Positions 15,820 to 32,003 of a stretch of 38,155 bases of DNA are shown piece by piece. Position 1 is the first letter of the stretch, and each line of letters opens with the position of its first letter. Source of the DNA: a virus; IMG/VR virus record IMGVR_UViG_3300044996_000447, positions 1 through 38,155 of that record; one strand, written 5' to 3'. Under the pieces are notes generated by a model. It was not told the DNA's origin and did not search any database. It worked only from the letters and a program-made list of their open reading frames with translations. Made by a program: the position numbers and the translations under genes.

Positions 15820-17613
15820 TCACAGGTTGATGGTGGCCGTCCACCGTGTATCACGGGCCGCGCTCGTGTGTGAAGCGGGCTCGGCCTTGATCAGCGACGT
15901 GTCGAACAGATCGGAGCCGCGCCCGGCCTTCCCGGCCCCGCCACGGCCCCGGCCAGACCGGGCGGGCTCGGCGGGCGCCTCGGCCGCGTCGGCGGCCTCC
16001 TGGCCGTCCTCCTGGCCCGGCTCGCCCTTGCCGCCGAGCAGCTTGGCGGCCGCTTCGTCGGCCTCGTCCGGCGGCACGGCGGCCGCGCCACCCGCGCCGT
16101 CGGCCCCCTCCGGCGGTGCGTCCTTGGCCTGCTTGAACTGCAGCCAGGTCGAGTCGAGGATGACCTGCCCCTCGCCGTTGGGCAGCGGCTTGTCGCCCAT
16201 CATGGCCCGCACCTCGTCGACGTAGTGCGTGGTCTTCACGAGCGCCTGATTGCGCTCGCGCTCGGCCTGTTCGCTCTTCTCGTCGATGCCGGTGGGCACG
16301 AGCTCCATCTCCGGCCGCAGCGGGGCGACGATCCAGCGGTTGATCCACTTGAAGAGCGCGCGCACCCGGGGCCGCAGCCAGCGGGCGCGCGAGGCCTGGA
16401 TTCTGTCGGTGGCGTTCTGCTGGCCGCCGATGCTGGCCGTCTGCCCGCTGTTCCCGTAGACGAAATTCATCTCCACGGGGTCGATGCCGCAGATCGCGCA
16501 GAGGATCTTGTTCAGGAAGTCGAGCCACTGCGAGAACTCCATCTCGCGGTTGTTCGCTCCCAGGCCGAGCCACTGCGCCTTGCCACCCCAGGCGATTGGC
16601 ACCTTGTGCGCGTTGCCCACCCCGGCGATCAGGGCGTGGAAGTACCGCTCGAAACGCCGCTGCTGTTCCTTCGGCGGCTCGGTCTCGAAGTGCAGGACGC
16701 CGCGCACGTTGGCGCCCTGCTTGAAGTAGGCTTTGTTGTAACCGTAGCCGTACAGCCAGGCGGCGAGCACGTCGATCAACTGCTCGAGCACGCTGTACCC
16801 GTAACCCGCGTTCTCGATGTCGGTCAGCGGGTGCATGACGCCGAACATCATCTGCTGCCCGTTGAACGAGGCCACGACGTTGTCGTGCTTGTCGACCTGC
16901 ACGTAGCGGGGGCTCGTCAGGTCGTTGTCGGGCAGGCGTGATCCGTCCTCGGGCGGCATGGCCAGCCGGATCGTGTGCGCCGGCCAGGGGTAGAAGCGGA
17001 ACGGCTCGAAGCGGCCGCCGAGCTTCCACGCCGCCGTCGGCTCGATCTGCCAGCACATCGCGTCGAAGCGGAACGAATCCCAAAACGTCGAGCGCACCAC
17101 GGACTCGAGATCGGGCCGGTTCACGAGCTCGGCCTCGTCCTCGTAGTAGCCGCAGTGCGTGACGAACTTCTGCATGCGCTCCATCTCCGCCCGCTCGGCC
17201 CTCGTCGGCGAGTAGCGGCGGTCCTTGCCCCGCATGCGCATCTCTTGCCCGGGCAGCGAGCGTTCCACCTGCGCGGTGCAGAACTCGGCCAGGCCGTCAC
17301 ACATCACGTTGCCGACGGCCGCAATGGGGGGCGTGCGAGCCATCCGGCGCAGCACGTCGAGGTCGATGCCGGTCGGGCGCTCGGCGTAGTCCCCGCCCCG
17401 GCTGGCGTTGTGCAGCGCGAGATCGGGATCGGTGACGATGCCGGCCGGCCCCTTGCCCCGGATCTTCGCCTTCGGCTTGCGCTCCGCGCCCGGGTTGTCG
17501 CCGTCGTCCGTCAGCCCGCTACCGCCGCCGCTGGCGGCCTTGGCGATCCGCTCTTCCTCTCGCCGCTCGAGCATGTCGAAGGCGAGCTCGCCGAGCTTTT
17601 CGAGAATGTCCAT
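15820..17613 (-). CDS. Portal protein, 597 aa
   Basis: Forms the dodecameric DNA channel at one capsid vertex. Recognisable portal features are the N-terminal helical part with MARTPPIAAVGNVMCDGLA, the wing/clip region (EPFRFYPWPAHTIRLAMP), and the stem/crown region with QWLDFLNKILCAICGIDPVEMNF and a Gln/Asn-rich QTASIGGQQNATDR. These are followed by long helices (LRPRVRALFKWINRWIVAP) and PTGIDEKSEQAERERNQAL. The last 90 residues are an acidic, Ala/Gly/Pro-rich tail ending in DTSLIKAEPASHTS, a tail motif also found in the minor head protein. The ATG overlaps the previous stop (TGATG); a GTG one codon earlier is possible. Length is normal. Confidence 0.85.
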   Translation of the reverse strand: MDILEKLGELAFDMLERREEERIAKAASGGGSGLTDDGDNPGAERKPKAKIRGKGPAGIVTDPDLALHNASRGGDYAERPTGIDLDVLRRMARTPPIAAVGNVMCDGLAEFCTAQVERSLPGQEMRMRGKDRRYSPTRAERAEMERMQKFVTHCGYYEDEAELVNRPDLESVVRSTFWDSFRFDAMCWQIEPTAAWKLGGRFEPFRFYPWPAHTIRLAMPPEDGSRLPDNDLTSPRYVQVDKHDNVVASFNGQQMMFGVMHPLTDIENAGYGYSVLEQLIDVLAAWLYGYGYNKAYFKQGANVRGVLHFETEPPKEQQRRFERYFHALIAGVGNAHKVPIAWGGKAQWLGLGANNREMEFSQWLDFLNKILCAICGIDPVEMNFVYGNSGQTASIGGQQNATDRIQASRARWLRPRVRALFKWINRWIVAPLRPEMELVPTGIDEKSEQAERERNQALVKTTHYVDEVRAMMGDKPLPNGEGQVILDSTWLQFKQAKDAPPEGADGAGGAAAVPPDEADEAAAKLLGGKGEPGQEDGQEAADAAEAPAEPARSGRGRGGAGKAGRGSDLFDTSLIKAEPASHTSAARDTRWTATINL

Positions 17614-18989
17614 CACAGCTCCGCCGACCGGACGCGGGCGAGGAATGCTTCGGCCTTGGCCAGCACGTCACCGCCGTTGATCTTCCGGCCGCGATTCTGC
17701 GGGTCGGCCAGCCAGGCCCGCAACTCCCCGATGCTCATGCGCCGGACGCTCTGCACGAAACCCCGCCCGGTGTAGTGGGCGCGGAAGACTGCCAGGGCCT
17801 CGTCACGCGAGCCGAACCCCAGCATGACCTTGTCCTCGTCGTAGCGGCGCGTGGCCGGGTCCTGCGTGTGCACGACGTAGGCGAAGGGCTCGAAGCGGCC
17901 GGGGCCGACGAAACAGTCCACCGCGTCGCCGTCGGCGCCCTCGGTGGCCACGAACTCGCCGTAGTGGACACGCATGCGCGTCTCCCACGGTGTTCCGTCC
18001 GGGCTCGTCCCCCGGCGCGTCGAGCCCGCCGCGTTCTCGACCCGGATCTTGAGGCCCTGGAAGTCCACCGTGCCCTGGTAGGGGAAGGTGGCCCGGTTGC
18101 GCGCGGGCGCCGGGCCGAGCGGGTGCGGCGGCCGGGCGAAGGCGGCGCGCACGAGCTGCGCCGGCCCGTCCCCCTTCGTGAGCGGTTCCGTCTTCGGGCG
18201 CGGCGCCCGGGCGGGCACGATGGCGAGCTGTCGGGTGTCGCCCGTCGGCCCCGTGTCGTGCCACCGCTCCATCAGCTCGGCATCGGTCAGGGTCATGGGC
18301 GCCTCCCCGGCCGGATCGGCCAGGACGATGCGGTCGCCCTGCTCGGCGATGGCCACGACGTAGTGCCCGGCGTCGTCGTTGGTCTGATCCCGGTCGCCCC
18401 AGGCCTGAATGTCGAGGATCGGGAAGATCCCCCGGCGGACCCAGGCCCGCACCATGCCCGCCGTGGCACCCTGGACGATGCGCGCCTCGAGGCCGCTCTC
18501 GGCGAGGCCCGCGCGCACGTTCTCCGGCGTCGTGCCGTCCCGGCGCGTCGAGCGCATCGTGCGAGCGAGGTCGGCCTGCTTGACGCCGATCCCGTGCATG
18601 GCCAGCAGCGTTTGCGCCGCCGCCGGCCCGCACAGGTGAGGCTCTTCCTGCCGGATGCCCGCGAACAAGGTGCCGCCGGTCTCCGCCTTGTGCAGGTCGA
18701 CGCCGCCCCGATGGTGGTGCGTCACCGCGTGTCGGATGCGGCGTGCAATCGGATCGGCCGGCGGGCGGTCGGGCAGCGGTGGCATTCCCTGCCGGATCTG
18801 ACGGGTTGCTGGGTCGCGCACGGCCTTCTCGAAGCGGCCCCCCATCGAGCGGTAGATCGCGCTCTTCAAGCGCCAGTAGCGGTCGCCGCTGGCCTCGGTG
18901 AGCCCGTATTGCTCCACCACGCGGGCGTGCGCCGCCTGGGCCTTGTCCTCGTCGAGGAAGTGCGCGCCCTTGGCGAGCTGATCCGCCAC
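17613..18989 (-). CDS. C39-like cysteine peptidase fused to InPase-type pyrophosphatase-like domain, 458 aa
   Basis: Residues about 105-245 form a papain-like C39-type peptidase: Cys120 in HLCGPAAAQTLL, His209 in DDAGHYVVAI and Asp225 in VLADPAGE give the expected Cys-His-Asp order. Residues about 300-430 match the phage/conjugative-element inorganic-pyrophosphatase-like domain (InPase): GLKIRVENAAGSTRRGT, RVHYGEFVATEGADGDAVD, DCFVGP, then DEDKVMLGF. The N-terminal 60 residues are helical (LAKGAHFLDEDKAQ), and the C-terminus ends GGDVLAKAEAFLARVR. The GTG start is two bases after the stop of the 1613-aa gene. Both domains are typical of polyvalent-protein systems. Processing of the giant proteins by the peptidase is inferred. 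Confidence 0.75.
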   Translation of the reverse strand: MADQLAKGAHFLDEDKAQAAHARVVEQYGLTEASGDRYWRLKSAIYRSMGGRFEKAVRDPATRQIRQGMPPLPDRPPADPIARRIRHAVTHHHRGGVDLHKAETGGTLFAGIRQEEPHLCGPAAAQTLLAMHGIGVKQADLARTMRSTRRDGTTPENVRAGLAESGLEARIVQGATAGMVRAWVRRGIFPILDIQAWGDRDQTNDDAGHYVVAIAEQGDRIVLADPAGEAPMTLTDAELMERWHDTGPTGDTRQLAIVPARAPRPKTEPLTKGDGPAQLVRAAFARPPHPLGPAPARNRATFPYQGTVDFQGLKIRVENAAGSTRRGTSPDGTPWETRMRVHYGEFVATEGADGDAVDCFVGPGRFEPFAYVVHTQDPATRRYDEDKVMLGFGSRDEALAVFRAHYTGRGFVQSVRRMSIGELRAWLADPQNRGRKINGGDVLAKAEAFLARVRSAEL

Positions 18990-18990
18990 G

Positions 18991-21900
18991 TCACGCCCCG
19001 GCCAGCAGGCCCGACTCGACCGCGCGCGCCCGGGCGCGTTCGACGCGCGCCGGATCGGCCTTCTGCATCGGCTCGCCCTCACCGCTGGCCGACGCCCCGC
19101 CGAGATCCATGCCGAAGTGATAGCGCAGCACGGCCCGGGTGTTGTCGTTGCGGAACCGCTGCCACGCGCCCTCGCCCGGGCTCCACTTGAAGCCGTGGCG
19201 CTTGAGCTTGGCGATGGTGTCCGCGTCCGGCTTGCCCGGGTAGAAGAGCTTGATCCGGTTGTCCTCGGCCGAGTCCTCGACGCGCACGTCCCCGAAGGTG
19301 TGCTCGCTTGAGGCCGTGCTCGTTTCCTTCGCCACCTGGCCGACGCGCCCCTCGAGACGCTTGATCTCCGCCAGGTTGTTCTTGAGCGAGTAGTCGGGGA
19401 AACCGATGCGGCCGGCGAAGTCGGGCTCGAAGAGGGCGCGCGCGCCCCGCTCGCTCATGCCGAGCGCGACGAGCTTGGGCACCTTGTCCTCGACCGTGCC
19501 CTTGGCCCGCACGATGGCGTTGGCCGCCTTCATCGTCTCCTGCGTGCGCTTGAGCTTGTCGAGCTTCGCCACGAGCTGCGCGTGCGCGTCGTCCCGGTCG
19601 GACGAGATCGAGGGCGGGTCGATCTTGTTCCTGATGGCCCGCCGCGCGCCGTTCATCCACTCCACGAGCTCGTCGAGGCGCTTGCGCTCGACCTCGTTGG
19701 CCTTGTTGTTGCGCCGCGTGGGGAAGTTGGACGGCCCGGTGATCATCGGCGAGAGCGTGCGCGACTGCGCCGACAGGCGGGCGTGCAGCCGCTTGAGGTA
19801 GCCGTCCCGGTAGCGTTCCAGCTCTTCCTTGAGGATCGCCCGCTTCTCCGGCGTGGTCGCGTAGCGCGTCAGGTCGGCCGCGAGCTCGTTCATGTGCGAG
19901 ACGAACCCGGCCTGCTCCTGCTCGGCGCGCTTGTCCGGCGTCCAGCTCGTGCCGGAGTGCGCGGCCTGGGCGAGGCGGCCGTCGACCATCGTGCGGCTGA
20001 CCTGCACGCCGAGCGCGTGCGCGGCCGGCGCCTCCGGGGCCGGGGCGGGTGGCGGCACGCGGGGGGCCTCGCTCGGCGCCCTGGCCGCGCCGGCCGTCGA
20101 GGTGCCGAGCATGGCCCGGGTGCGCGCCTCGCGCTCGGCCGCCACGAGCTTCGCCTCGCGGGCCTTGGCCGCCTCCGGCGTGTCCGCCGCCGCCGTGACC
20201 TCGATCCGCTCGGCCATGGCCAGCGCCTCGGTGCGCGGCCCGTCGAAGGCGCCGACCCAGCGCCCGCTGGCGAGATCCTGCTGCAGGACCGAGTGCACGC
20301 CGTTGGGGTTGCCGATGACCATGACCCGGCCGCTCGGCGAGTCGTAGACCGGGCGGCCGCCCTCGTCGTGGCGCTTCGTCCACTTCGCCGGTGCGGCTCC
20401 GGGGTGGACCGGCTGCGCGCTGGCGGCCGCCGGCCCAGCCGCTGCCCGCTGCGCCTCCAGCTCGGCGATCACGGGCTCGATGCGGTCCATGTAGCCCACG
20501 CCCTTGCGGCCCATGTCGTGCTCGATCTCGGCCTTGCTCTTCGTCGGGGCCGCGATGTGGGCGTTGGCCGCCTGCGACACCCGCTCCGCATCGGCCGTCT
20601 TGGCCTGCGCGGCCGGGACCAGCGTGTCGAGGCTTCGGCCACCGCCGTTGACCACGTTGACCCGGATGCGGTGGTGCGCGTCCCCGGCGGCCGCGTGCGC
20701 GCTGTGCGCGTCCCGATGTTTCTCGGCCCCACTGGAGTCGCCCATCATCTCGAGCGCGTCGGCGCGATCCCGATGCCACGCCGCGCGGTCGGTGTGCTTG
20801 TCGCGCTGCGCGGCGGCGGTCGTCGAGGCCTGCTCGGCCGTCGAAGCGGCGGGCGCTGCGGGCGCTGGCGCTGGCGCTGCGCCCCACTTCGCCATGAAGT
20901 CGCGCGCGGCCTGCTCGGTGCGGAAGGTGTGCGGCTGACCGCGCAGGCGGTAGCCGCCCCGGGCCTTGGCGTCCGCGTCCATCTCGGCCAGGCGCTCGGC
21001 CGGCACCTCGCCCACGGTGGGCGCCTGGTAGACCGTGGCGCCCGTGCTGCGCGTCGAGGCCGGTGTGACCTCGCCGAACCGGACGCCGCCGGACGGGGCC
21101 TCCGGGGCCGCAGGCGCGGGGGCGGCGGCGGGCGCCTGCGGGGGCGTGGCAGCGGCCGTACCGGCCTCGACGGCCCGCTCTCGCGCTCGCTCGGCCCGCT
21201 CCCCGCGCGTCGGCGTCGGGTCCACCGTGGCGCCCGTGATGGCCGCGCGCACGTTGTCGGTGGCCTCCGGGTGGTGCGAGCGGTAGATGATGGCCGCCTG
21301 GGCGGCCTTGTTCCGCAGCTTGCCCGCGATGGCCCCGGTGAAGGTGACGGTCTGATCGGGGTGCAGCGCGATGTCGCTCGGCTCCGCCCGGCTGGCCGAG
21401 CTCGACGCTTCGGCGCCCGACAGGGCCGCGAGGTTGTAGGCGGGCTTGCCGCCGTACACGGGTTTGCCGACCACGAGGTAGCGGCGCGGGCCACCGCCCA
21501 GGGTCACGACCGAGCCGACGTTCACCTCGGCCGGCGGCGACGCTGCGGGCGCAGCGGGCTTGTTCGCCGGAGCGGCCGGGGCCGACTCTCCGACCTTGAT
21601 CGGCAGCTCTGGCACCTTGCCCGCGCGCTGCCGCTTGCCGTCTCGCTCCGCCTCGAGGAAGAGCGCGCGGTCCCAGTCCACCCGGGCGCTCACCCCGGGC
21701 GAGCTCGTGCCGTTCCAACCGTCGCCCCGGGATGTGCCGAAGCTGCGCCCCAAGTGCTCGACCCGGCGCTCGAACTCCAGGGCTTCCGGCGTCATGATCT
21801 GGTCGCGCTGGCGGAACGTGTTGTAGACGCTGTCGCCCTGCTCGCGGTACGCGGCCAGGAACTCGGGCCGGTAGACCTGAAACGGCACGTCCTGCGGGGT

Positions 21901-23890: not shown

Positions 23891-23973
23891 GGCACCGCCG
23901 ACCATCGCCGGGACCGGCCCCCGGGTGCGGGAATGCGCGCGTGCCGAAGCCGCGCACGATGGCCGACGGTGCC
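23891..23973. repeat. Imperfect 17-base inverted repeat
   Basis: Arms 23891-23907 and 23957-23973 are complementary at 15 of 17 positions around 49 bases. The repeat sits 60-140 bases upstream of the 1613-aa start and would fold in its leader RNA, or could be an operator pair. Confidence 0.5.
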
Positions 23974-24210
23974 ACGACATGATCGTCAACGAATCGGCCC
24001 GCCCTGGCTTGACGCACGGGCCGCTCGTCCTTCGTGAACCGCCGTCGGTGGGGGAACACCGGAGGTGGCGGCGGGCTCGGCACTTACCTCGCGTCGGAGA
24101 CGCACACCCGAGGCCCGCGCCCCGTGAATGCCTCGACGGCGGATTGCCAGGCGTCTCGGCGGGGGAACTGCGGGCGGCCTCGCCCTGTTCGTGGGGTAGT
24201 CAAAGACCGG

Positions 24211-24278
24211 CGGGGCGGCGCAGCGACGGCGGGCACCCGCACTGCGCCGCCCCGGAACTCCGGGGACAAGGGGTGTCC
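24211..24278. repeat. Chain of three strong hairpins
   Basis: Arms 24211-24223 and 24242-24254 are perfectly complementary over 13 bases, with a small nested stem in the 18-base loop. The right arm also belongs to a second stem (24250-24256 with 24259-24265), and a third stem (24264-24268 with 24274-24278) follows. The first two stems compete for the same bases, as in attenuators. No T-run follows on either strand. Confidence 0.6.
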
Positions 24279-24285
24279 GCGCGCA

Positions 24286-24314
24286 ACTATGAGCGGGCCG
24301 CGCCAACCCGACAA
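24286..24314 (-). promoter_or_regulatory. Candidate sigma-70-like promoter for the leftward head operon
   Basis: On the minus strand TTGTCG (24314-24309) and CATAGT (24291-24286) are 17 bases apart, each matching consensus at four of six positions. Transcription would start near 24279, exactly at the hairpin chain, leaving a leader of about 445 bases. Weak match; unproven. Confidence 0.3.
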
Positions 24315-24352
24315 GTGCATCCGACACGCAGCGTGCAACGTACTGAAATCAC

Positions 24353-24409
24353 GTCGTTTGTACGTTTCTGCATTTTGTCGTTGCGTCGTTAGCGTGCCGC
24401 GCCTACTGT
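24353..24409 (+). promoter_or_regulatory. GTCGTT repeats and weak promoter upstream of the modification cassette
   Basis: GTCGTT occurs at 24353-24358, 24377-24382 and 24385-24390 in the AT-richer patch. TTGCGT (24381-24386) and TACTGT (24404-24409) have 17-base spacing but match consensus poorly. The repeats could bind a regulator. Transcription from here would give a short leader with a small CCCCG/CGGGG stem (24418-24432) before the first gene. Confidence 0.3.
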
Positions 24410-24463
24410 TGACCTTGCCCCGACTGCCGGGGCGGCGGAAGACCTATGGCAGGGAGACGGAAG

Positions 24464-24676
24464 ATGCCCGGTTTCAAGTTGGTCGAAGGTGCTCACTACT
24501 TCTGCGACAACGGCGCCTGCTACTGCTCGGCGCACCTCGGCTACTCGGCCAAGACGACCGGCCGGGACATCAGCGGCCAGAAGATCCACCGCGTCACCAA
24601 GGCCGAAATGGCCGAGCTGGAGACCATCCTGCGCGGCCGCCCGGCCTGCGAGTCCTGCCGGGTGGCCCGCAAGTGA
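24464..24676 (+). CDS. Small Cys-rich protein, 70 aa, first gene of modification cassette
   Basis: Unrecognised. Four Cys in the N-terminal third (CDNGACYC with HYFC just before) and CESC near the C-terminus suggest one or two zinc-binding sites, with a short helix between (KAEMAELETILRG). I chose MPGFKLVEG because AGGGAGACGGAAG precedes this ATG; an ATG six codons earlier has a weaker leader. Its stop overlaps the GTG of the DpdA-like gene, so the two are coupled. A zinc-ribbon partner or regulator of the transglycosylase is possible but unproven. Confidence 0.65.
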   Translation: MPGFKLVEGAHYFCDNGACYCSAHLGYSAKTTGRDISGQKIHRVTKAEMAELETILRGRPACESCRVARK

Positions 24677-25629
24677 GCACCACGATCCGCATCGGCCTCC
24701 CCATCGTGGGCGGCGCCCTGCCCGCCGCCGCTCGTTCGCTTGGCGCGGCCGTGCTCGTCAGCGCCAACGCTCTCGCCCGCTACCGTGGGCGCGGCGTCGA
24801 GCGCGACTTCGCGGGCTTCCGGCTCTCCTGCCCGGATCTCGACGGCCTGGACGTGGCCCTCGACTCGGCCGGCTTCGTCGCCCACGCGCACTACGGCGCG
24901 TTCCCCTGGACGGTCGAACAGTACGTGGCCCTCGCCGCGTCGCGGCGGTGGGCGTGGTGGGCGCAAATGGACGCCTGCTGCGAGGCCGAGATCGCGGCCG
25001 ACCGTGGCGCGGTCCGCCTGCGGCAGGCCGAGACGATCCGCCTGCTCGGCGTGTGCGAGAAGCTGGCCAGCGAGGCCGGGATCGAGCCGCCGATGCCCGT
25101 CCTGCAGGGGCGCACGGTCGAAGACTACGTCTGGCATGTCCAGCAGCTCGGCGCGCGCCTCGAGGGCCGCGCGCTCGTCGGCGTCGGCTCGATGTGCCGG
25201 CGCAACGTGTACGGGCCGGAAGGCCTGCTTGCCGTGGTCGATGCGCTCGACCGCGTGCTGCCCCCGGGGGTCCGCCTGCACCTCTTCGGCGTGAAGTCGA
25301 GCGGGCTCTCGGCGCTGGCCGCTCACCCGCGCGTGGCGAGCATCGACTCGATGGCCTGGGACACGGGCGCCCGGTTCGACAACAAGTTCGCCAGCCGCAC
25401 GATGGACGTGCGGGTCGGCGCCATGGGCCGCTGGTACGGGCGGCAGGTCGAGGCCGTCGAGGCCGCCGACTTCTTTCAGCCGGGCATGTTCGGCCCGGGC
25501 GCGCCGGAGGGCATCGGTCAGGCGCACGAGGAATGGGGCGACCTGCTGGCCGCCGATGAGTGCGGGCTCGGCGAGGCAGCCTACTTCGCGGCCGAAGAGG
25601 CCTGCTGGGGCGCCGAGGCCTTCCGATGA
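24673..25629 (+). CDS. dpdA: DpdA-like DNA 7-deazaguanine transglycosylase
   Basis: Related to tRNA-guanine transglycosylases; the DpdA branch exchanges guanine for a 7-deazaguanine in DNA. Motifs seen: DVALDSAGFVAHAHYG (DSAGF parallels the DSGGF of TGT), PPMPVLQGRTVEDY, ALVGVGSMCRRN, LHLFGVKSSGL and ASIDSMAWDTGARF, the last giving the candidate nucleophile Asp in the D-S-M-A-W signature of phage DpdA proteins. At 318 aa it is compact, and the Cys-Cys-Cys-His zinc site of tRNA enzymes is not evident. The GTG start overlaps the previous stop. No queuosine-precursor genes lie in the window, so the base would come from the host or from elsewhere in the phage. A tRNA target cannot be excluded. 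Confidence 0.75.
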   Translation: MSTTIRIGLPIVGGALPAAARSLGAAVLVSANALARYRGRGVERDFAGFRLSCPDLDGLDVALDSAGFVAHAHYGAFPWTVEQYVALAASRRWAWWAQMDACCEAEIAADRGAVRLRQAETIRLLGVCEKLASEAGIEPPMPVLQGRTVEDYVWHVQQLGARLEGRALVGVGSMCRRNVYGPEGLLAVVDALDRVLPPGVRLHLFGVKSSGLSALAAHPRVASIDSMAWDTGARFDNKFASRTMDVRVGAMGRWYGRQVEAVEAADFFQPGMFGPGAPEGIGQAHEEWGDLLAADECGLGEAAYFAAEEACWGAEAFR

Positions 25630-26072
25630 GCGTCACGCCCGCCATGTGCCCGCCCGACGGCGTGCCGTTCGTTCTCGCCAAGGGTTCGCTCGGCGACGGC
25701 ACGGCCGCCGACGCCCCGGTCAACGTCGTCGGACGCTGCAAGGAATGCCGGGCCGGCCTGCGCGTCTCCGGTGCCCTGCGCGGCTACGCGGGCAAGGACT
25801 CCTGGGGCGTGCGCTGCGTCTTCCAGCTCCCCGGCGGCGCGCTCGGCCTCGCCCACTGCAATTCGTGGGCGCACGGCCTGCTCGTCAACTGCCCGGCCTG
25901 CGCAGCGGCGGGCAAGCGCGATCCGCTCGGCAACCCGCGCCGGGTCCTACTCGCGCCGGTGCTCGGCCGGTACAACGCGAGCAAGAAGTGCGACGGCCGG
26001 TGCACCTCCGCCACCGGCCACAACTGCGAATGCCAGTGCGGCGGCCGCAATCACGGGAGCGACCACGGATGA
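25626..26072 (+). CDS. Cys-rich zinc-binding hypothetical protein, 148 aa
   Basis: Fourteen cysteines, several paired: CKEC, CPAC, and a C-terminal cluster KCDGRCTSATGHNCECQCGG followed by NHG. This C-terminal signature occurs in small unassigned phage proteins of high-GC hosts. The ATG overlaps the dpdA stop (ATGA), and its own stop overlaps the mom start, so it is locked between two DNA-modification genes. Overlap of a zinc-finger gene with mom recalls com-mom of phage Mu, but this is not a recognisable Com homologue. Function is unknown; a role in modification or its translation control is inference. Confidence 0.65.
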   Translation: MSVTPAMCPPDGVPFVLAKGSLGDGTAADAPVNVVGRCKECRAGLRVSGALRGYAGKDSWGVRCVFQLPGGALGLAHCNSWAHGLLVNCPACAAAGKRDPLGNPRRVLLAPVLGRYNASKKCDGRCTSATGHNCECQCGGRNHGSDHG

Positions 26073-26878
26073 TGACCCAGCTCGACCTGCCGATCCCCTG
26101 CCAGCGGTGGCGCGCCCGCCGCGCCTCCTACCGCCCCGCCGGTGAGCCCATCGACCCGCGCCGGTACTCGGTCGAGGTGGTCGAGGAAGCGGCCGCCCGG
26201 GCCTTCGTGGTCGAGCACCACTACGCGGGCACCTTCCCGGCCGCCCGGCTCTCGGTGGGCCTCCACCGGGCCGGCGCGGGCCTCGTGGGCGTGGCCGTGT
26301 TCTCGGTCCCCATGCAGCCGAAGAGCGTCACCCGCCACGCCGGCCAGGACCCGGCCGCCGGTGTCGAGCTCGGCCGCTTCGTCCTGCTCGACGAGGAACC
26401 GGCCAACGCCGAGACGTGGATGCTCGCGCGGGCCTTCCGTCTGCTGCGCGCGGCCAAGCCGGACGTGCGGGCCGTGGTCAGCTACAGCGATCCGGTCGCC
26501 CGCGTGAGCGAGAGCGGCCACGAGATCAAGCCGGGCCACGTCGGGACCATCTACCGGGCGTTCAACGGCCGGTTCGTCGGGCGCAGCTCGCCGCGCGTGC
26601 TCGTCCTGGCCCGTGACGGCCGCGTGGTGTCCGGCCGGACGCTGACCAAGCTGCGCAAGGGCGAGCGCGGGGCCGCTGCCGCATACCGCACGCTGCTCGA
26701 CATGGGCGCGCCCCGTCGCCTGCCGGGCGAGGCCGACGAGGCCTACGTCTCGCGCGCCCTGCTCGAGGGGCCGTTCCGGCGCATGCCTCACCCGGGCAAC
26801 CTCGCCTACGCCTGGGGCCTGGACGAGGCCGCCAGGGCCGCACTGCCGGAGGCGCAGCCGTTCCCGGTCGCCGTCTGA
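26069..26878 (+). CDS. mom: Mom-like adenine hypermodification protein, 269 aa
   Basis: Mom of phage Mu converts adenine in DNA to a carbamoylmethyl form and protects against restriction; it has a GNAT-like fold. Family-like motifs: FVVEHHYAGTFPAARLSVG, VELGRFVLLDEEPANAETW, LARAFRLLRA, AVVSYSDPVARV, GHVGTIYRAFNGRFVGRS, and the end MPHPGNLAYAWGL. Order and spacing fit the wider Mom family recalled from actinobacterial phages. The N-terminus MMTQLDLPIP resembles the clamp-binding peptide of Hda (QLSLPL). The first ATG overlaps the previous stop. No catalytic proof is possible from sequence alone, but the family call is fairly firm. Confidence 0.75.
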   Translation: MMTQLDLPIPCQRWRARRASYRPAGEPIDPRRYSVEVVEEAAARAFVVEHHYAGTFPAARLSVGLHRAGAGLVGVAVFSVPMQPKSVTRHAGQDPAAGVELGRFVLLDEEPANAETWMLARAFRLLRAAKPDVRAVVSYSDPVARVSESGHEIKPGHVGTIYRAFNGRFVGRSSPRVLVLARDGRVVSGRTLTKLRKGERGAAAAYRTLLDMGAPRRLPGEADEAYVSRALLEGPFRRMPHPGNLAYAWGLDEAARAALPEAQPFPVAV

Positions 26879-26913
26879 CCGCACCTGTCAAGGTGCGGAG
26901 AAATCCTTTCTCC
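26879..26913 (+). promoter_or_regulatory. Two overlapping hairpins after mom
   Basis: Stem 1 pairs 26879-26885 with 26892-26898 (seven bases). Stem 2 pairs 26897-26903 with 26907-26913 (seven bases, three-base loop). They share two bases, so they compete or stack. A C-run rather than T-run follows, and GGAGG for the next gene begins 11 bases on. Likely partial terminator or translation control. Confidence 0.5.
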
Positions 26914-26932
26914 ACCCCCCGCAGGAGGCCCC

Positions 26933-27238
26933 ATGCCCAACCCCTCGAAGATCCGCTCTCCCCGCTTCTGGCGGCGATGGTGCGCCGCTGGCGCGGTCAC
27001 CAACGTGGACGGCGACCGCCTCGACTTCTGGATGCTCAAGCGGTTCCGGCCGCGCGTCCACGGCGCGCGCGCCACGGTGCTCGTGGACGGGAAGCCCATC
27101 GGCCACGCCGTCGGCTTCCGCACCGTGAACGAAATGCGTGCCGACCTCGATCTGGTGCCGCTCGAGGCCCCGCTCGGCGAGATCCTGCCAGTCGCCTTCA
27201 CCATGACGTTCAAGCGCGTGCCGGACGGCCAGCCGTGA
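26933..27238 (+). CDS. Hypothetical protein, 101 aa
   Basis: Not recognised. A strong GCAGGAGG lies about five bases before the ATG, the best ribosome site in the cassette, which suggests independent or higher translation than mom. The N-terminus is basic (KIRSPRFWRRWCAAG), then a beta-rich core (ATVLVDGKPIGHAVGF) and a C-terminus EILPVAFTMTFKRVP. It may be a small nucleic-acid- or protein-binding protein. Its stop overlaps the GTG of the next gene. Confidence 0.6.
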   Translation: MPNPSKIRSPRFWRRWCAAGAVTNVDGDRLDFWMLKRFRPRVHGARATVLVDGKPIGHAVGFRTVNEMRADLDLVPLEAPLGEILPVAFTMTFKRVPDGQP

Positions 27239-27600
27239 GCGCGCGCGTCGACCGCTGCCTGGGCGTGAAGCTCCTGCACCCGACGCGCTGCTGCGACGAG
27301 TGCCCATGGCGCCGCGACCAGCCGGCCGGGCGCTTCCCCCCAGCGCGGTACAAGGCCCTGCGCGGATCGTGCGAGCAGGGCCTCGCGCCGATGTTCGCCT
27401 GCCACAAGTCGCCGGAGGCGGAGCCGTTCGCCTGCGCCGGGTACGTGCTCGTCGAAGGCGGGCAGGGCAGCCCGCGCAACTTCAACCTCCGCATGGCCCT
27501 CGCGCGCGGCCGCTGCGACCCCCGGGCGATCACCACCGATCCGGCGTCCTTGTGGCCCAGTTTCGAGGCCATGGCCGCCTTCAACGGCTGCGACGACTAG
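27235..27600 (+). CDS. DUF6283-like Cys-rich protein, 121 aa
   Basis: The pattern CCDECPWRRDQPAGRFP, then APMFACHKSPEAE and FACAGYVLVEG, matches my memory of the DUF6283 family (C-x-x-C-P-(W/Y)-R-x-D...F-x-C-H), common in phages and actinobacteria and of unknown function. The Cys/His set could bind zinc. The GTG overlaps the preceding stop. Its TAG stop shares the CTAG palindrome with the stop of terL on the other strand, so there is no room for a terminator between the convergent genes. Confidence 0.65.
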   Translation: MSARVDRCLGVKLLHPTRCCDECPWRRDQPAGRFPPARYKALRGSCEQGLAPMFACHKSPEAEPFACAGYVLVEGGQGSPRNFNLRMALARGRCDPRAITTDPASLWPSFEAMAAFNGCDD

Positions 27601-29786
27601 AGGCCGAGCAGGTCGCGCAGCATCGCGCGCGTGATGTCGATGCCCTGCGTGAGCACGAGCTGGCCGAAGGCCGGGTCACACTCGACCACCCGGGGCGGCT
27701 CGACCGAGAGCGCGTTCCAGGCCTGCACCTGCTCGGCTCGGTCGGCCGGTAGCTCGGCAGCGGCCTCGCGCACCCCCTCGACGCCGTCGGGGTGGATGAG
27801 CGAGGCGTGGCGCCAGGTGACCGCGTGCACGTTGACGCGCGGGGCCACCGCGTCGCGCCGCTGCGTGCGCGCCGCCGACTCAGCCGCCCGGTCGGCCTCG
27901 ACGAGCGCGGCGAGCTGGTCCTGCGGCCCGGAGGCCTGCGCCAGCGCGGCCAGGTGCTCGGCTTCCTTCCGCCGGGCCACGGCGGCCGGATCGTCGTCCT
28001 CGCCCTCGGAGAACCCGAACTCGGCGCCGGCCCGGATGGCCTGATCGGCGATCCACATGGCCATGACGCAGTCGTCGTGATTCCCGATGCCCTGCACCTT
28101 GCCGTCGACGAACCCGAAGTCATTGAGCTCGTCGAGCAGGATGTCGGTCAGCTCGACCGAGAGCGCGTCCCCGCGCGGGAACCGCCACTTGCCGTTCTCG
28201 ATCAAGGGCCGCAGCGACGGCACGCCCCGGCGCAGCGTGTGCTTTTCCTCGCCGGTGCGGAACGGACGGACGGGCAGATCGGTGCGGCGCGCGAGCTGCT
28301 GCGCGAACAAGACCTGCATCTGATTCGACTCGATGAAGATCAGGTCGGCCCCGTAGCTGGCGTGCGCGTCCTTGATCCGCTGCAACTGCTCGTCGAACGA
28401 CCATCCCTTGCCGCGCACGAGGTCGATGAGGTGGCGGTTTCCGTGCCCGTCCACGCCGACCACGAGGATCACCGTGAAGTCGGCCCCGACCTCGGCCGAG
28501 ATCGCGAGGTCGACGCCCATGTAGACCGACCAGCCGGCGGCGGCGATGTCCGCCCGGGTCGGCTTGAGCCGGGCCAGGCTGTTCAGGGTCTCGGGGTGGC
28601 GCGAGAAGAGCTCGCGCGGGAAGAGCGAGGTCTCGTCGGAGACCGGGCGCAGCTCGACCTCCTGCACGTAGGCCAGCGCGTTGCTCTCGCGCTCGCGCCG
28701 GTGCCACTTCTCGTTGCGCAGCGCCGGCCACAGGTACACGTCGCGGCCGCTCTTCGTCCGCCGGTGCCCCGGGTACTTCCGATGCAACCAGTCCCCGCGC
28801 TCGCGCCCCCGTTCGTCCGCCCGCTTGGAGAGCGCGGCTAGGTCGGCGTGCAGGTCGTCGCCGTGCATCGGCGTCCCGATCACGACGAGGTGCGCGAACG
28901 CCGCCGGCAGGAGCATCTTGGCGACGGTGCGGTGCAGGAAGTCCTTGGATTTCTTACGTTCTACGCTGCTGTATTGGCTGTTGTCGCGCAGTGGATCGTC
29001 CACGACGATCCACTGGACGTGCGCGCCGCGAAACGACTTGCCGAACGTCTTGGCGACGAACTGCGAGCCGTTCTCGAACCAGATCCGCTCGGTGGTCCAC
29101 GTCGTCTCCCACGAGGCCGGGATCAGCGGCGCGAGACATGGAAGCTGCGCCGCCGGGGGCATGGTCCACTCGACGCCGTACTCGTCGGTGAAGCTCTTGC
29201 CGTCCTTGATCAGCCGCATCAGGCTCGAGACCTGCCCCTCGGTGTTGCTGATCAGCAGGCCGAGCGTGTGCGGGTCGCGCCACGAGCGCCACAGGGGGAA
29301 GGCATAGGACCAGAACGAACTCTTGCCGTGGCCTCGCGCGGCCAGGAGCGCGAGGTGCGAGTGCTCGACCAGCAGCTCGCTCCACTCGATGTGATGCGGC
29401 CCGACCTTCATCCCGGCCGCGTGCCGCATCCAGTAGGCCAGCGAGTCGCGCTGTAGCTGCTCGTGGACCCCGCCCAGCAGGGCCTTCGTCGTGTCGTCCA
29501 GGGGGGCGGCGACGCCGCTGGCCTCCGCGTCCTCGCGGCGCAGCTTCCACGAGGCCAGGCGGGCGCGCTCGATGTCGCTGGCCTGCCCGATCCGGGTCAG
29601 GATCTCGCCCGCGCCGTCGTCGTCGAGGAAGCGCGCCCGGATCTCGTCGAGGGCCGCCTCCAGCTCGTTAGCCTGGCGTGCGCTCGGCGCGCGGAACGGG
29701 GTAACGCCGTCGTAACGGCGCGCGTGCTCGACACCTGCTACGGCCAGCGCGGCCACGAGCAGCCGCAGGAGCGCGCGCCGGATCAC
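27597..29786 (-). CDS. terL: Terminase large subunit, 729 aa
   Basis: ATP-driven DNA packaging motor and nuclease. The ATPase part has Walker A GHGKSS (about residues 151-156) and Walker B IVVDDP (about 259-264), with GTPMHGDD after it as a coupling motif. The RNase H-like nuclease part has VYMGVDLAI (about 424), IFIESN (about 483) and NHDDCVMAMW (about 568), giving the acidic metal-binding set. A C-terminal extension of about 150 residues (Ala/Glu/Arg-rich helices) is longer than usual. The GTG start overlaps the upstream stop; the N-terminus RRALLRLLVAALAVAGV is unusually hydrophobic, and no nearby ATG offers an alternative. Confidence 0.9.
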   Translation of the reverse strand: MIRRALLRLLVAALAVAGVEHARRYDGVTPFRAPSARQANELEAALDEIRARFLDDDGAGEILTRIGQASDIERARLASWKLRREDAEASGVAAPLDDTTKALLGGVHEQLQRDSLAYWMRHAAGMKVGPHHIEWSELLVEHSHLALLAARGHGKSSFWSYAFPLWRSWRDPHTLGLLISNTEGQVSSLMRLIKDGKSFTDEYGVEWTMPPAAQLPCLAPLIPASWETTWTTERIWFENGSQFVAKTFGKSFRGAHVQWIVVDDPLRDNSQYSSVERKKSKDFLHRTVAKMLLPAAFAHLVVIGTPMHGDDLHADLAALSKRADERGRERGDWLHRKYPGHRRTKSGRDVYLWPALRNEKWHRRERESNALAYVQEVELRPVSDETSLFPRELFSRHPETLNSLARLKPTRADIAAAGWSVYMGVDLAISAEVGADFTVILVVGVDGHGNRHLIDLVRGKGWSFDEQLQRIKDAHASYGADLIFIESNQMQVLFAQQLARRTDLPVRPFRTGEEKHTLRRGVPSLRPLIENGKWRFPRGDALSVELTDILLDELNDFGFVDGKVQGIGNHDDCVMAMWIADQAIRAGAEFGFSEGEDDDPAAVARRKEAEHLAALAQASGPQDQLAALVEADRAAESAARTQRRDAVAPRVNVHAVTWRHASLIHPDGVEGVREAAAELPADRAEQVQAWNALSVEPPRVVECDPAFGQLVLTQGIDITRAMLRDLLGL

Positions 29787-30310
29787 AGGGCGGCCGGGAC
29801 GAGGCGCAGCCGGACGGGCTGCGCGGCCGTGGTCAGCTCGACCGTGGCGGGCCTGCTGCACGTCGCGCACGCCACGGCGCCGGTGCGGTGCAGGACGAGG
29901 CCCAGGGGTGTCCACGTCCCCCCCGCGCAGGCCGGGCAGACCCAGCGCACCCGGATCTCGTCGAGCGCCCCGTGGGGCGGCGCCCGGCGGTGCCGGATCG
30001 TGGTGTCCGGCTCGCCCCGCACGAACGCAGCCGCCCCGTCGGCCAGCCGCTCAGGCCAGCCCTGCCCGGCCTCCACGGGGCCGATGGCCAGGCGCACCAC
30101 GCGCAGGACCCCGACCTCGAGGGCCACGAACGTGAGGCGCACGATGCGGGCCGCGCCGTCCACCTCGAGGCGGATCTCGCCGTGCTGGCCCTCGCTGACC
30201 AGGGCGCCGCAGCCGTTGTGCACGGGCTCGGCCTGCCAGCCGCCCGCACGGTCGGGCAGGACGGTCAACAGGTGGGCGATGGCCCGCTGCGCGGCGTCGG
30301 CCGGCGTCAC
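29783..30310 (-). CDS. Hypothetical protein with zinc-ribbon-like C-terminus, 175 aa
   Basis: Unrecognised. An N-terminal helix (ADAAQRAIAHLLTVLP) leads to a beta-rich middle (IRLEVDGAARIVRLTF, VGVLRVVRLAIG), then two Cys pairs, CPAC and CATC, about 25 residues apart, which suit a zinc ribbon. GTG start and stop both overlap neighbours, placing it in the packaging operon directly before terL. It might assist packaging, but small terminase subunits do not normally look like this. Confidence 0.6.
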   Translation of the reverse strand: MTPADAAQRAIAHLLTVLPDRAGGWQAEPVHNGCGALVSEGQHGEIRLEVDGAARIVRLTFVALEVGVLRVVRLAIGPVEAGQGWPERLADGAAAFVRGEPDTTIRHRRAPPHGALDEIRVRWVCPACAGGTWTPLGLVLHRTGAVACATCSRPATVELTTAAQPVRLRLVPAAL

Positions 30311-30744: not shown

Positions 30745-31074
30745 CTACGTGGTGAGGTGAGAACGAACGGCATCGGCGAGCGGCCCGGCGTCCGGGCGGC
30801 CGGCCAGGTGGGCGGCGAGATCGCGGGTGGACGCGCCGGCCAGGACGGCGGCGCGCAGGTCGAACGGCAGACCGTCCGGGCCGGCCAGGACGGCCCCGCC
30901 CGGTCCCAGGTAGCCCTTGCGCCGCAGCTCGGCGCAGTGGGCGGCCACGGTCCCCGGCGAGCGCAGGCCGAGCACGGCGCAGACCTCGCGCGCGGTGGGC
31001 GCCCGGCCCCGGGCCACGAGCCCGGCCACGAGGGCGGCGAGCACGGCCGCCTGCCGTGGGGTCAGGCCGGGCAC
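30745..31074 (-). CDS. LexA-type winged-helix DNA-binding protein without peptidase domain, 109 aa
   Basis: Residues 3-57 match the LexA N-terminal winged helix: LTPRQAAVLAALVAGL, then RAPTAREVCAVLGLRSPGTV and AAHCAELRRKGYL, the R-x-P-T-x-x-E...S-x-x-x-V...L-x-x-K-G-x-(I/L) pattern. The remaining 50 residues (FDLRAAVLAGASTRDLAAHLAG) lack the Ser-Lys self-cleavage domain of LexA. The GTG start overlaps the methyltransferase gene by 13 bases. It probably represses or activates phage genes; SOS-box binding is not implied. Being just upstream of the terminase genes, it could time late transcription. Confidence 0.7.
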   Translation of the reverse strand: MPGLTPRQAAVLAALVAGLVARGRAPTAREVCAVLGLRSPGTVAAHCAELRRKGYLGPGGAVLAGPDGLPFDLRAAVLAGASTRDLAAHLAGRPDAGPLADAVRSHLTT

Positions 31075-32003
31075 GCGGTGGCCTCGTCGAGGTCGAAGAG
31101 CGACGGCTGCACGGCCGGGCGGCCGTGGGGCGGGCGGTTCATGGTCAGGAACTCGCGCCGGCTCTTCGCGAAGCTGCGCGGCTGCCCCCGGTGGGCGGTG
31201 GTGATGTCGACCACCTGCCAGCCGTCGCCGGTCAGCTCGGCCACGGGCTCGCCTTCGGAGATCGCCACGACCGCCCCGGCGGCGCCGAAGCGGCGGGCGA
31301 CCTCGACCACCTCGGCCCGGCTCAGGGTCGGCCCGTAGCCGGTCGTGCCCGCGTAGGGCGGGTCGATGTAGACGAACGTGCGCGCGTCCACCCCGATCTC
31401 GCCCGGGTCGAGCTCGGCCGCGCTCTTCCGCAGGATCGTGGTCGACGCCGGCCATCGCACCGTTCCCGCGCGCGAGAGCCGGCGGGCCAGCCCGGCCGGG
31501 TTCAGGCGCCACTTGAAGTGACGCGGCTCGTTCGTGCCCTCGCCCTCGAGCTGGCGCGCCGAGCGGGCATAGCCGGGCGTGCTCCACGCCCCGGAGCTGA
31601 TCGCCATCACCGGCTTGCCCCCGAAGGCGCCGTCTTGCAGGGCCAGGAAGGCGGCCAGCCAAGCGGCGCCGTCGGCGGGCTGCCCGGCGTCCTCGAGGCG
31701 GTCGAAGAGCGCGCGCCCCTCGTCCCCGGCCCGATGCCACGCCCGCAGCAGGTGCACGGCCTCCTGCACCGTCGCGGGCTCGACGAGCGACTGCCAGGCC
31801 CGGCCCCACGTCCCCGGATCGTTCAGGACGACGCGGGCGGCGCCCTGCCCCGGGCGCAGGCCCAGCGCCGACAGGACGGCCGTGGCGTAGCGCCGTTTCG
31901 CGCCCTGGTAGGTGACCGCCGAGTCGTGATCGGCGCCACCGACGAGGCGGTGCGCCACGGCGGCCGTGCCAGCGCACAGCTCAACCCAGGCAACGCCGCT
32001 CAC
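31062..32003 (-). CDS. D12-class DNA adenine N6-methyltransferase, 313 aa
   Basis: Transfers methyl from S-adenosylmethionine to adenine N6 in DNA. Motif I appears as WVELCAGTAAVAHRL (residues 6-20), TYQGAKRRY (about 31-39) is the usual Dam-type K-R region, and motif IV is VYIDPPYAGT with D214-P-P-Y217. FGAAGAVVAISEGEP follows. The C-terminus carries QPSLF (residues 299-303), like a sliding-clamp-binding peptide. It starts at GTG in a GTGA overlap. No cognate endonuclease adjoins it, so it is probably an orphan protective or regulatory methylase. The target sequence is unknown. Confidence 0.8.
   Translation of the reverse strand: MSGVAWVELCAGTAAVAHRLVGGADHDSAVTYQGAKRRYATAVLSALGLRPGQGAARVVLNDPGTWGRAWQSLVEPATVQEAVHLLRAWHRAGDEGRALFDRLEDAGQPADGAAWLAAFLALQDGAFGGKPVMAISSGAWSTPGYARSARQLEGEGTNEPRHFKWRLNPAGLARRLSRAGTVRWPASTTILRKSAAELDPGEIGVDARTFVYIDPPYAGTTGYGPTLSRAEVVEVARRFGAAGAVVAISEGEPVAELTGDGWQVVDITTAHRGQPRSFAKSRREFLTMNRPPHGRPAVQPSLFDLDEATACPA

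What the first reader, a model, noticed from the sequence alone, without database searches (positions are those of the whole stretch)
24464..27600. Dual hypermodification cassette (DpdA-like plus Mom-like) inserted backwards in the head cluster
Two different base-modification chemistries, 7-deazaguanine insertion at G and carbamoylmethylation at A, are encoded in one overlapping operon with Cys-rich partners. The cassette runs opposite to all other genes and sits between terL and the rest of the head genes, like a defence-evasion cargo. With the adenine methylase upstream, up to three modifications may coexist.
Basis: partly seen in the sequence, partly recalled or inferred. Interest (0 to 1): 0.75.

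Follow-up and report, generated by a model that had tools for sequence, protein, structure and literature searches.

The report
Backward phage DpdA–Mom DNA-modification cassette
This uncultured phage carries, in reverse orientation beside its DNA-packaging gene, a small operon with two different DNA-base-modifying enzymes that probably disguise its genome from bacterial restriction enzymes; the same pairing has arisen several times in other phages, so it looks like a real partnership that I could not find described.

Summary
On the + strand at 24464–27600, six packed genes include a DpdA (PF23859, E 9e-19; best PDB fold match is the DpdA DNA preQ0 insertase) and a Mom (PF25680, E 1e-26; matches the solved phage Mu Mom). 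Recognisable flanking genes run on the – strand. In a sister phage (L001) the same site keeps the small Cys gene and dpdA (89%), but everything between the dpdA stop and the terL stop is replaced by one gene whose best PDB fold match is also Mom. More distant relatives (58% TerL) carry other backward genes there: a cargo hotspot. Elsewhere, Mom-superfamily genes lie within about 6 kb of 12 of 57 DpdA clusters versus 0 of 43 control clusters (p = 0.001), once in the same reading frame; a tree needs at least 3 changes of pairing. Most Mom genes have no dpdA nearby. No preQ0-synthesis gene was found, so any 7-deazaguanine must come from the host; modification itself is unproven. Best reading: a dual anti-restriction cassette. 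Mom-type acylation of the DpdA-installed base is a less likely alternative. The third (adenine-methylase) modification is weakly supported.

The parts
23968..24463 (.). Leader region between the divergent polyvalent gene and the cassette; conserved with the sister phage, contains long blocks of identity although non-coding
   Evidence: 88% DNA identity block 23968-25631 vs L001 and alignment; no Rfam match, fold z -0.56
24464..24676 (+). g1, small Cys/His-rich protein, travels with dpdA
   Evidence: 85% identical in L001; no family; no phage-record homologue; start
24673..25629 (+). dpdA: DpdA/TGT-fold DNA guanine transglycosylase (singleton type)
   Evidence: PF23859 E 9e-19, phrog_1279 E 7e-24, fold best match 7ui4, invariant D64, D100, Q145, D225
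25626..26072 (+). 148-aa Cys-rich protein overlapping the mom start; not a Com homologue by the searches run
   Evidence: phrog_6842 over residues 112-147 only, E 3e-6; no Pfam match
26069..26878 (+). mom: Mom-family GNAT acyltransferase
   Evidence: PF25680 E 1.2e-26, phrog_1384, PDB 8bv8 E 9.5e-27 by profile, H58/Y59/D149/Y159 of Mu Mom kept
26933..27238 (+). g5, 101-aa protein of unknown family
   Evidence: no family match of note; AGGAGG before the start
27235..27600 (+). DUF6283 Cys-rich protein, stop overlaps terL stop
   Evidence: PF19800 E 4.9e-19; start by 4-nt overlap
27597..29915 (-). terL, convergent with the cassette
   Evidence: phrog_38 E 5e-65, PF17289
18991..23895 (-). 1634-aa polyvalent-type protein, divergent from the cassette
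   Evidence: phrog_19458 primase-like C-terminal part E 2.5e-41

Best explanation
A mobile, reverse-oriented anti-restriction cargo cassette in a hotspot beside terL. DpdA exchanges selected guanines in phage DNA for a 7-deazaguanine (preQ0-type) base taken from the host's queuosine pathway. Mom, separately encoded and swappable, acylates adenine N6 (carbamoylmethyl type) at other sites. Together they would mask two different bases from host restriction enzymes. Shown here: gene identities, operon overlaps, gene-boundary swap of the mom module, recurrence of the DpdA-Mom pairing in unrelated phages and prophages, conserved active-site-type residues. Inferred: that both enzymes act on virion DNA, the chemical products, precursor supply by the host, and protection from restriction.
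For: Pfam/PHROG matches far above cut-off; DpdA fold best match 7ui4; Mom profile matches Mu Mom 8bv8 and keeps its H58/Y59/D149/Y159, with T at S124; swap at the dpdA and terL stops vs L001; other backward cargo in L352-L354; dpdA-linked Mom genes in 12/57 clusters vs 0/43 control, p=0.001; dpdA-linked Moms polyphyletic. Singleton-dpdA phages 7-11 and MED16 do carry dADG (PMC6884629, PMC8306585).
Against: No preQ0-pathway or transporter gene found in the sister contig; singleton phage Orion is unmodified (PMC6884629); 0/80 Mom-query loci have dpdA within 5 kb; dADG in MED16 barely affected restriction enzymes (PMC8306585); no wet-lab data; host unknown.
Confidence: 0.6

Rival explanations
1. 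Sequential hypermodification: DpdA installs a 7-deazaguanine with a side chain (for example a preQ1-type amine) and the Mom-superfamily GNAT acylates that side chain, so the two enzymes make one new base rather than two separate modified bases.
For: dpdA is constant while the GNAT is exchanged for a related one at the same site; DpdA and GNAT share one 943-aa reading frame in L019; the L001 GNAT lacks the D149 and Y59 equivalents of Mom, so it may use another acceptor.
Against: The window's own Mom keeps the Mu-type residues and its closest relatives live without dpdA; most Mom loci have no dpdA.
Confidence: 0.17
2. Two unrelated cargo genes that happen to share the hotspot; one or both may be inactive, for example DpdA without a precursor in its host.
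For: Hotspot with changing contents; singleton DpdA, no preQ0 genes found; Orion unmodified (PMC6884629); 0/80 reverse test.
Against: Recurrent same-strand pairing (19 of 20), p=0.001 against one control gene, independent origins and a fused form; the same GNAT superfamily replaces mom beside dpdA in L001; conserved catalytic-type residues in both.
Confidence: 0.18
3. The enzymes act on RNA or small molecules (tRNA guanine exchange, ordinary acetylation), not on phage DNA.
For: TGT and GNAT folds are shared with tRNA and small-molecule enzymes; PHROGs names the family queuine tRNA-ribosyltransferase.
Against: Best PDB fold match is the DNA enzyme DpdA, ahead of all TGTs; Mom matches the DNA-modifying family at E 1e-26.
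Confidence: 0.05

Closest known systems
Phage singleton DpdA (third group of Hutinet et al. 2019; Pantoea phage MED16, Salmonella phage 7-11)
   Same: DpdA family by profile and fold, no own preQ0 pathway genes found
   Different: A separate long DpdA clade (about 35% identical or less to mycobacteriophage DpdA), linked to a Mom-superfamily gene
Phage Mu com-mom
   Same: Mom family, same active-site-type residues, Cys-rich gene directly upstream overlapping the mom start
   Different: The upstream Cys gene gives no Com match; overlap is only 4 nt (79 nt in Mu); mom is paired with dpdA
Sphingomonas dpdA-mom loci (L249, L252, L253, L256; scaffold MT836715)
   Same: dpdA directly followed by mom on the same strand
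   Different: Different neighbours; Mom only about 43% identical; no g1, Cys gene or DUF6283 found there
NCBIfam XF1762 family
   Same: Replaces mom at the same site in L001; joined to Mom by iterative profile search, and the fold model of the L001 member gives Mu Mom as best PDB match
   Different: The L001 member scores 47.5 bits (cut-off 50) and lacks Mom's D149 and Y59 equivalents; function unknown

Membership tests
DpdA (PF23859) | Match to the curated DpdA profile above its cut-off | tested here: met
   68 bits vs cut-off 27
DpdA (PF23859) | TGT-type fold, nearest to a DNA transglycosylase | tested here: met
   pLDDT 83.5 model, top hit 7ui4 E 3e-8, then TGTs
DpdA (PF23859) | Conserved Asp/Gln residues at TGT catalytic and base-binding positions | tested here: met
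   D64, D100, Q145, D225 invariant in 14 relatives; equivalence to TGT positions rests on my knowledge
DpdA (PF23859) | Inserts 7-deazaguanine into DNA | not testable with these tools
   needs LC-MS
Bacterial dpd-cluster DpdA (NF041059) | Match above the equivalog cut-off | tested here: not met
   17.1 bits vs 200
Mom (PF25680) | Match to the curated Mom profile above its cut-off | tested here: met
   94.1 bits vs 27.1
Mom (PF25680) | Residues H58, Y59, S124, D149, Y159 of Mu Mom | tested here: met
   H51, Y52, T116 (conservative), D141, Y162; S124A is titled inactive in 8bv8
Mom (PF25680) | Carbamoylmethylates adenine N6 in DNA | not testable with these tools
   needs LC-MS
com-mom regulatory pair (phage Mu) | Com homologue before mom | tested here: not met
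   upstream Cys protein has no Pfam match and only a PHROG of unknown function over its last 36 residues
Dual G and A hypermodification system | Both modified bases present in virion DNA | not testable with these tools
   needs nucleoside LC-MS or nanopore data
DNA N6-adenine methyltransferase (third modification) | Methyltransferase profile match of 31062-32003 | tested here: inconclusive
   DPPY and YQGAK motifs by eye, phrog_56 E 5e-4, no Pfam match, no PDB match

The most novel reading that the evidence does not exclude
DpdA and Mom-superfamily GNATs form a recurrent two-step pathway in which the base inserted by DpdA is acylated by the GNAT, giving an undescribed acyl-7-deazaguanine in phage DNA; the mom/XF1762 module is swapped to change the side chain.
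Probability: 0.15. Interest if true: 0.85.

Novelty: new variant of a known kind. Interest (0 to 1): 0.55.

Why it matters
Phages are known that carry a 7-deazaguanine system or a Mom system. A repeatedly assembled DpdA–Mom pair, with a fused form and a sister phage that swaps only the Mom module, suggests either layered protection of two bases or a new two-step base. It gives a direct experimental handle: the same dpdA next to two different GNATs. It also marks the slot beside terL in this phage lineage as a place to look for further counter-defence genes.

Tried and rejected
Com homology for the Cys-rich genes (no family match; Mu Com read). A structured RNA in the conserved leader (no Rfam match, z -0.56). 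Sigma-70 promoters or intrinsic terminators (none). Own preQ0 supply (QueC, QueD, YhhQ not found in the sister contig). Homologues of g1 in phage records (none). DUF6283 as part of the deazaguanine pathway: its homologue in Mycobacterium phage Bipper sits among genes none of which is annotated as a pathway gene within 7 kb. Using Mom loci as proof of coupling failed: 0 of 80 have dpdA within 5 kb. Literature: no held paper combines '7-deazaguanine' with 'momylation'; three papers hold DpdA, Mom, phage and 7-deazaguanine together, of which I opened one, MED16, which has dpdA and dam but is not a dpdA–mom case.

Full report
WHAT IS THERE. The window is a complete IMG/VR record of 38,155 bases, classed linear and possibly a fragment. 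The recognisable flanking phage genes lie on the – strand: major capsid protein, protease, portal, an InPase/C39 polyvalent protein, a 1634-aa polyvalent protein and terL. Between the polyvalent gene (start 23895) and terL (stop 27597), six genes run the other way: g1 (24464–24676), dpdA (24673–25629), a Cys-rich gene (25626–26072), mom (26069–26878), g5 (26933–27238) and a DUF6283 gene (27235–27600). Four junctions are 4-nt start/stop overlaps, and the last stop overlaps the stop of terL. GC3 of 0.90–0.95 in each matches the neighbouring real genes.

IDENTITY. DpdA: PF23859 E 9e-19 and phrog_1279 E 7e-24. A structure model built from 14 relatives (pLDDT 83.5) gives PDB 7ui4, the DNA preQ0 insertase DpdA, as best match, followed by tRNA-guanine transglycosylases. 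Residues D64, D100, E104, Q145, G170, G172 and D225 are invariant in the 14. Mom: PF25680 E 1e-26, phrog_1384 E 1e-27; a Mom alignment finds the solved phage Mu Mom (8bv8) at E 9.5e-27. Against Mu Mom itself, H58, Y59, D149 and Y159 are kept and S124 is a threonine. The other genes are small: g1 travels with dpdA; the Cys gene resembles a PHROG only in its last 36 residues; DUF6283 is of unknown function; g5 has no family.

A SWAP IN A SISTER PHAGE. L001 comes from a 94.9-kb IMG/VR contig with TerL 84–85% identical. DNA homology runs at 88% from 23968 through the non-coding leader, g1 and dpdA, ends at 25631 just past the dpdA stop, and resumes at 27597, the terL stop, at 82%. Between these points the window has Cys–mom–g5–DUF6283, and L001 has one 342-aa gene. 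That gene matches NCBIfam XF1762 (E 1.6e-12, just below its cut-off), and its model (pLDDT 71.7) has Mu Mom 8bv8 as best PDB match. An iterative profile started from it and the L019 domain reaches the Mom proteins. So dpdA stays and a Mom-superfamily acyltransferase is exchanged. In phages with TerL 58% identical (L352–L354) the region after terL contains other backward, partly Cys-rich genes and no dpdA or mom. The slot is therefore a hotspot for reverse cargo, which accounts for the odd orientation.

IS THE PAIRING MORE THAN CHANCE? I took 80 dpdA loci from viral contigs and 80 from bacterial genomes. Twenty have a Mom/XF1762-superfamily gene within about 6 kb, 19 of them on the same strand. 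Clustered at 70% DpdA identity, 12 of 57 clusters have such a partner, against 0 of 43 clusters of a dnaB control set (Fisher p = 0.001); within 1.5 kb it is 6 of 57 (p = 0.036). Only one control gene was used, so this is good but not final. dpdA–mom back to back occurs in Sphingomonas-type loci L249, L252, L253, L256, in the near-identical scaffold MT836715 (L005), and nearly so in Ramlibacter L270; L068 has mom–dpdA; L013 has a neighbouring GNAT; in L019 DpdA, a Cys-containing segment and the GNAT share one 943-aa reading frame, and that GNAT passes the Pfam Mom cut-off. A Mom tree needs five changes of the label 'dpdA-linked', at least three forced by well-supported branches. The window's Mom is closest to L003/L004, which have no dpdA in the stretches held, so this pairing looks separately assembled.

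LIMITS. The reverse test fails: none of 80 Mom-query loci has dpdA within 5 kb, and among 20 XF1762-query loci only the two already known ones do. Mom does not need DpdA in general. The sister contig has no QueC, QueD or YhhQ, so substrate must come from the host. For such singleton-dpdA phages the published record is mixed: Orion unmodified, Salmonella 7-11 traces of dADG (PMC6884629), Pantoea MED16 dADG with little effect on restriction enzymes, alongside a Dam methylase (PMC8306585). The host of the window phage is unknown; the best TerL match among phage records is only about 27% identical.

HOW IT MOST LIKELY WORKS. Most likely (0.6) the cassette adds two separate marks: a host-derived 7-deazaguanine placed by DpdA and an N6-acyl adenine placed by Mom, each defeating a different set of restriction enzymes. 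The chemistry is inferred from family, not shown. Next (0.18), two unrelated cargo genes, perhaps not active together. Close behind (0.17), the acyltransferase modifies the base placed by DpdA: the constancy of dpdA, the exchange of the GNAT, the fusion and the altered residues of the L001 GNAT fit this, while the Mu-type residue set of the window's own Mom argues against it here. An RNA or small-molecule role (0.05) is least likely.

Two modification enzymes, overlapping operon, reverse orientation and cargo character are supported. 'Up to three modifications' is not: the methylase-like gene at 31062–32003 shows a DPPY motif but no convincing family match. Restriction evasion is plausible and untested.

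NOVELTY. Each part belongs to a known family. A dpdA–mom operon did not turn up in the papers I could search; the library lacks most subscription journals, and I opened only one of the three papers listed. I rate it a new variant of a known kind.

Noticed in passing
L019:4887-7718: One open reading frame of 943 aa joins a DpdA domain, a CxxC/CC segment and an XF1762/Mom-type GNAT (Pfam Mom at its cut-off).
   Followed up: partly
L352-L354, after terL (e.g. L353:12247-16949): The same slot in 58%-TerL relatives holds about 5 kb of other opposite-strand genes, several Cys-rich, functions unknown.
   Followed up: partly
window 23968-24463: Non-coding leader before the cassette is conserved with the sister phage in long identical blocks; no Rfam match or unusual fold stability.
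   Followed up: partly
window 26880-26900: Inverted repeat CCGCACC-GTCAA-type loop-GGTGCGG directly after the mom stop, without a T-run.
   Followed up: no
L354:12848-16267: A polyvalent-type protein next to the slot scores with the XF1762/Mom-superfamily profile (E 1.7e-21), so such a GNAT also sits inside a large phage protein.
   Followed up: no
L005 (MT836715) and L252: A scaffold labelled human-gut phage and a contig labelled Arthrobacter sp. TPD3018 carry a locus nearly identical to one in Sphingomonas lacusdianchii (L249); their labels may be wrong.
   Followed up: no
window 25959-26069: The last 36 residues of the Cys-rich protein match a motif in Mycobacterium phages (Larva, Kratio and others) that also carry a DpdA-like gene about 4 kb away.
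   Followed up: partly
window 17613-19082: Head-cluster protein combining a C39-type peptidase and an inorganic-pyrophosphatase-like domain (PF03412, PF18823).
   Followed up: no
L204:8589-9740 and L224:9255-10571: Sphingomonad dpdA-mom loci have a PAPS-reductase/PP-loop-like gene (by eye, SGGKDSSAA motif) between dpdA and mom.
   Followed up: no
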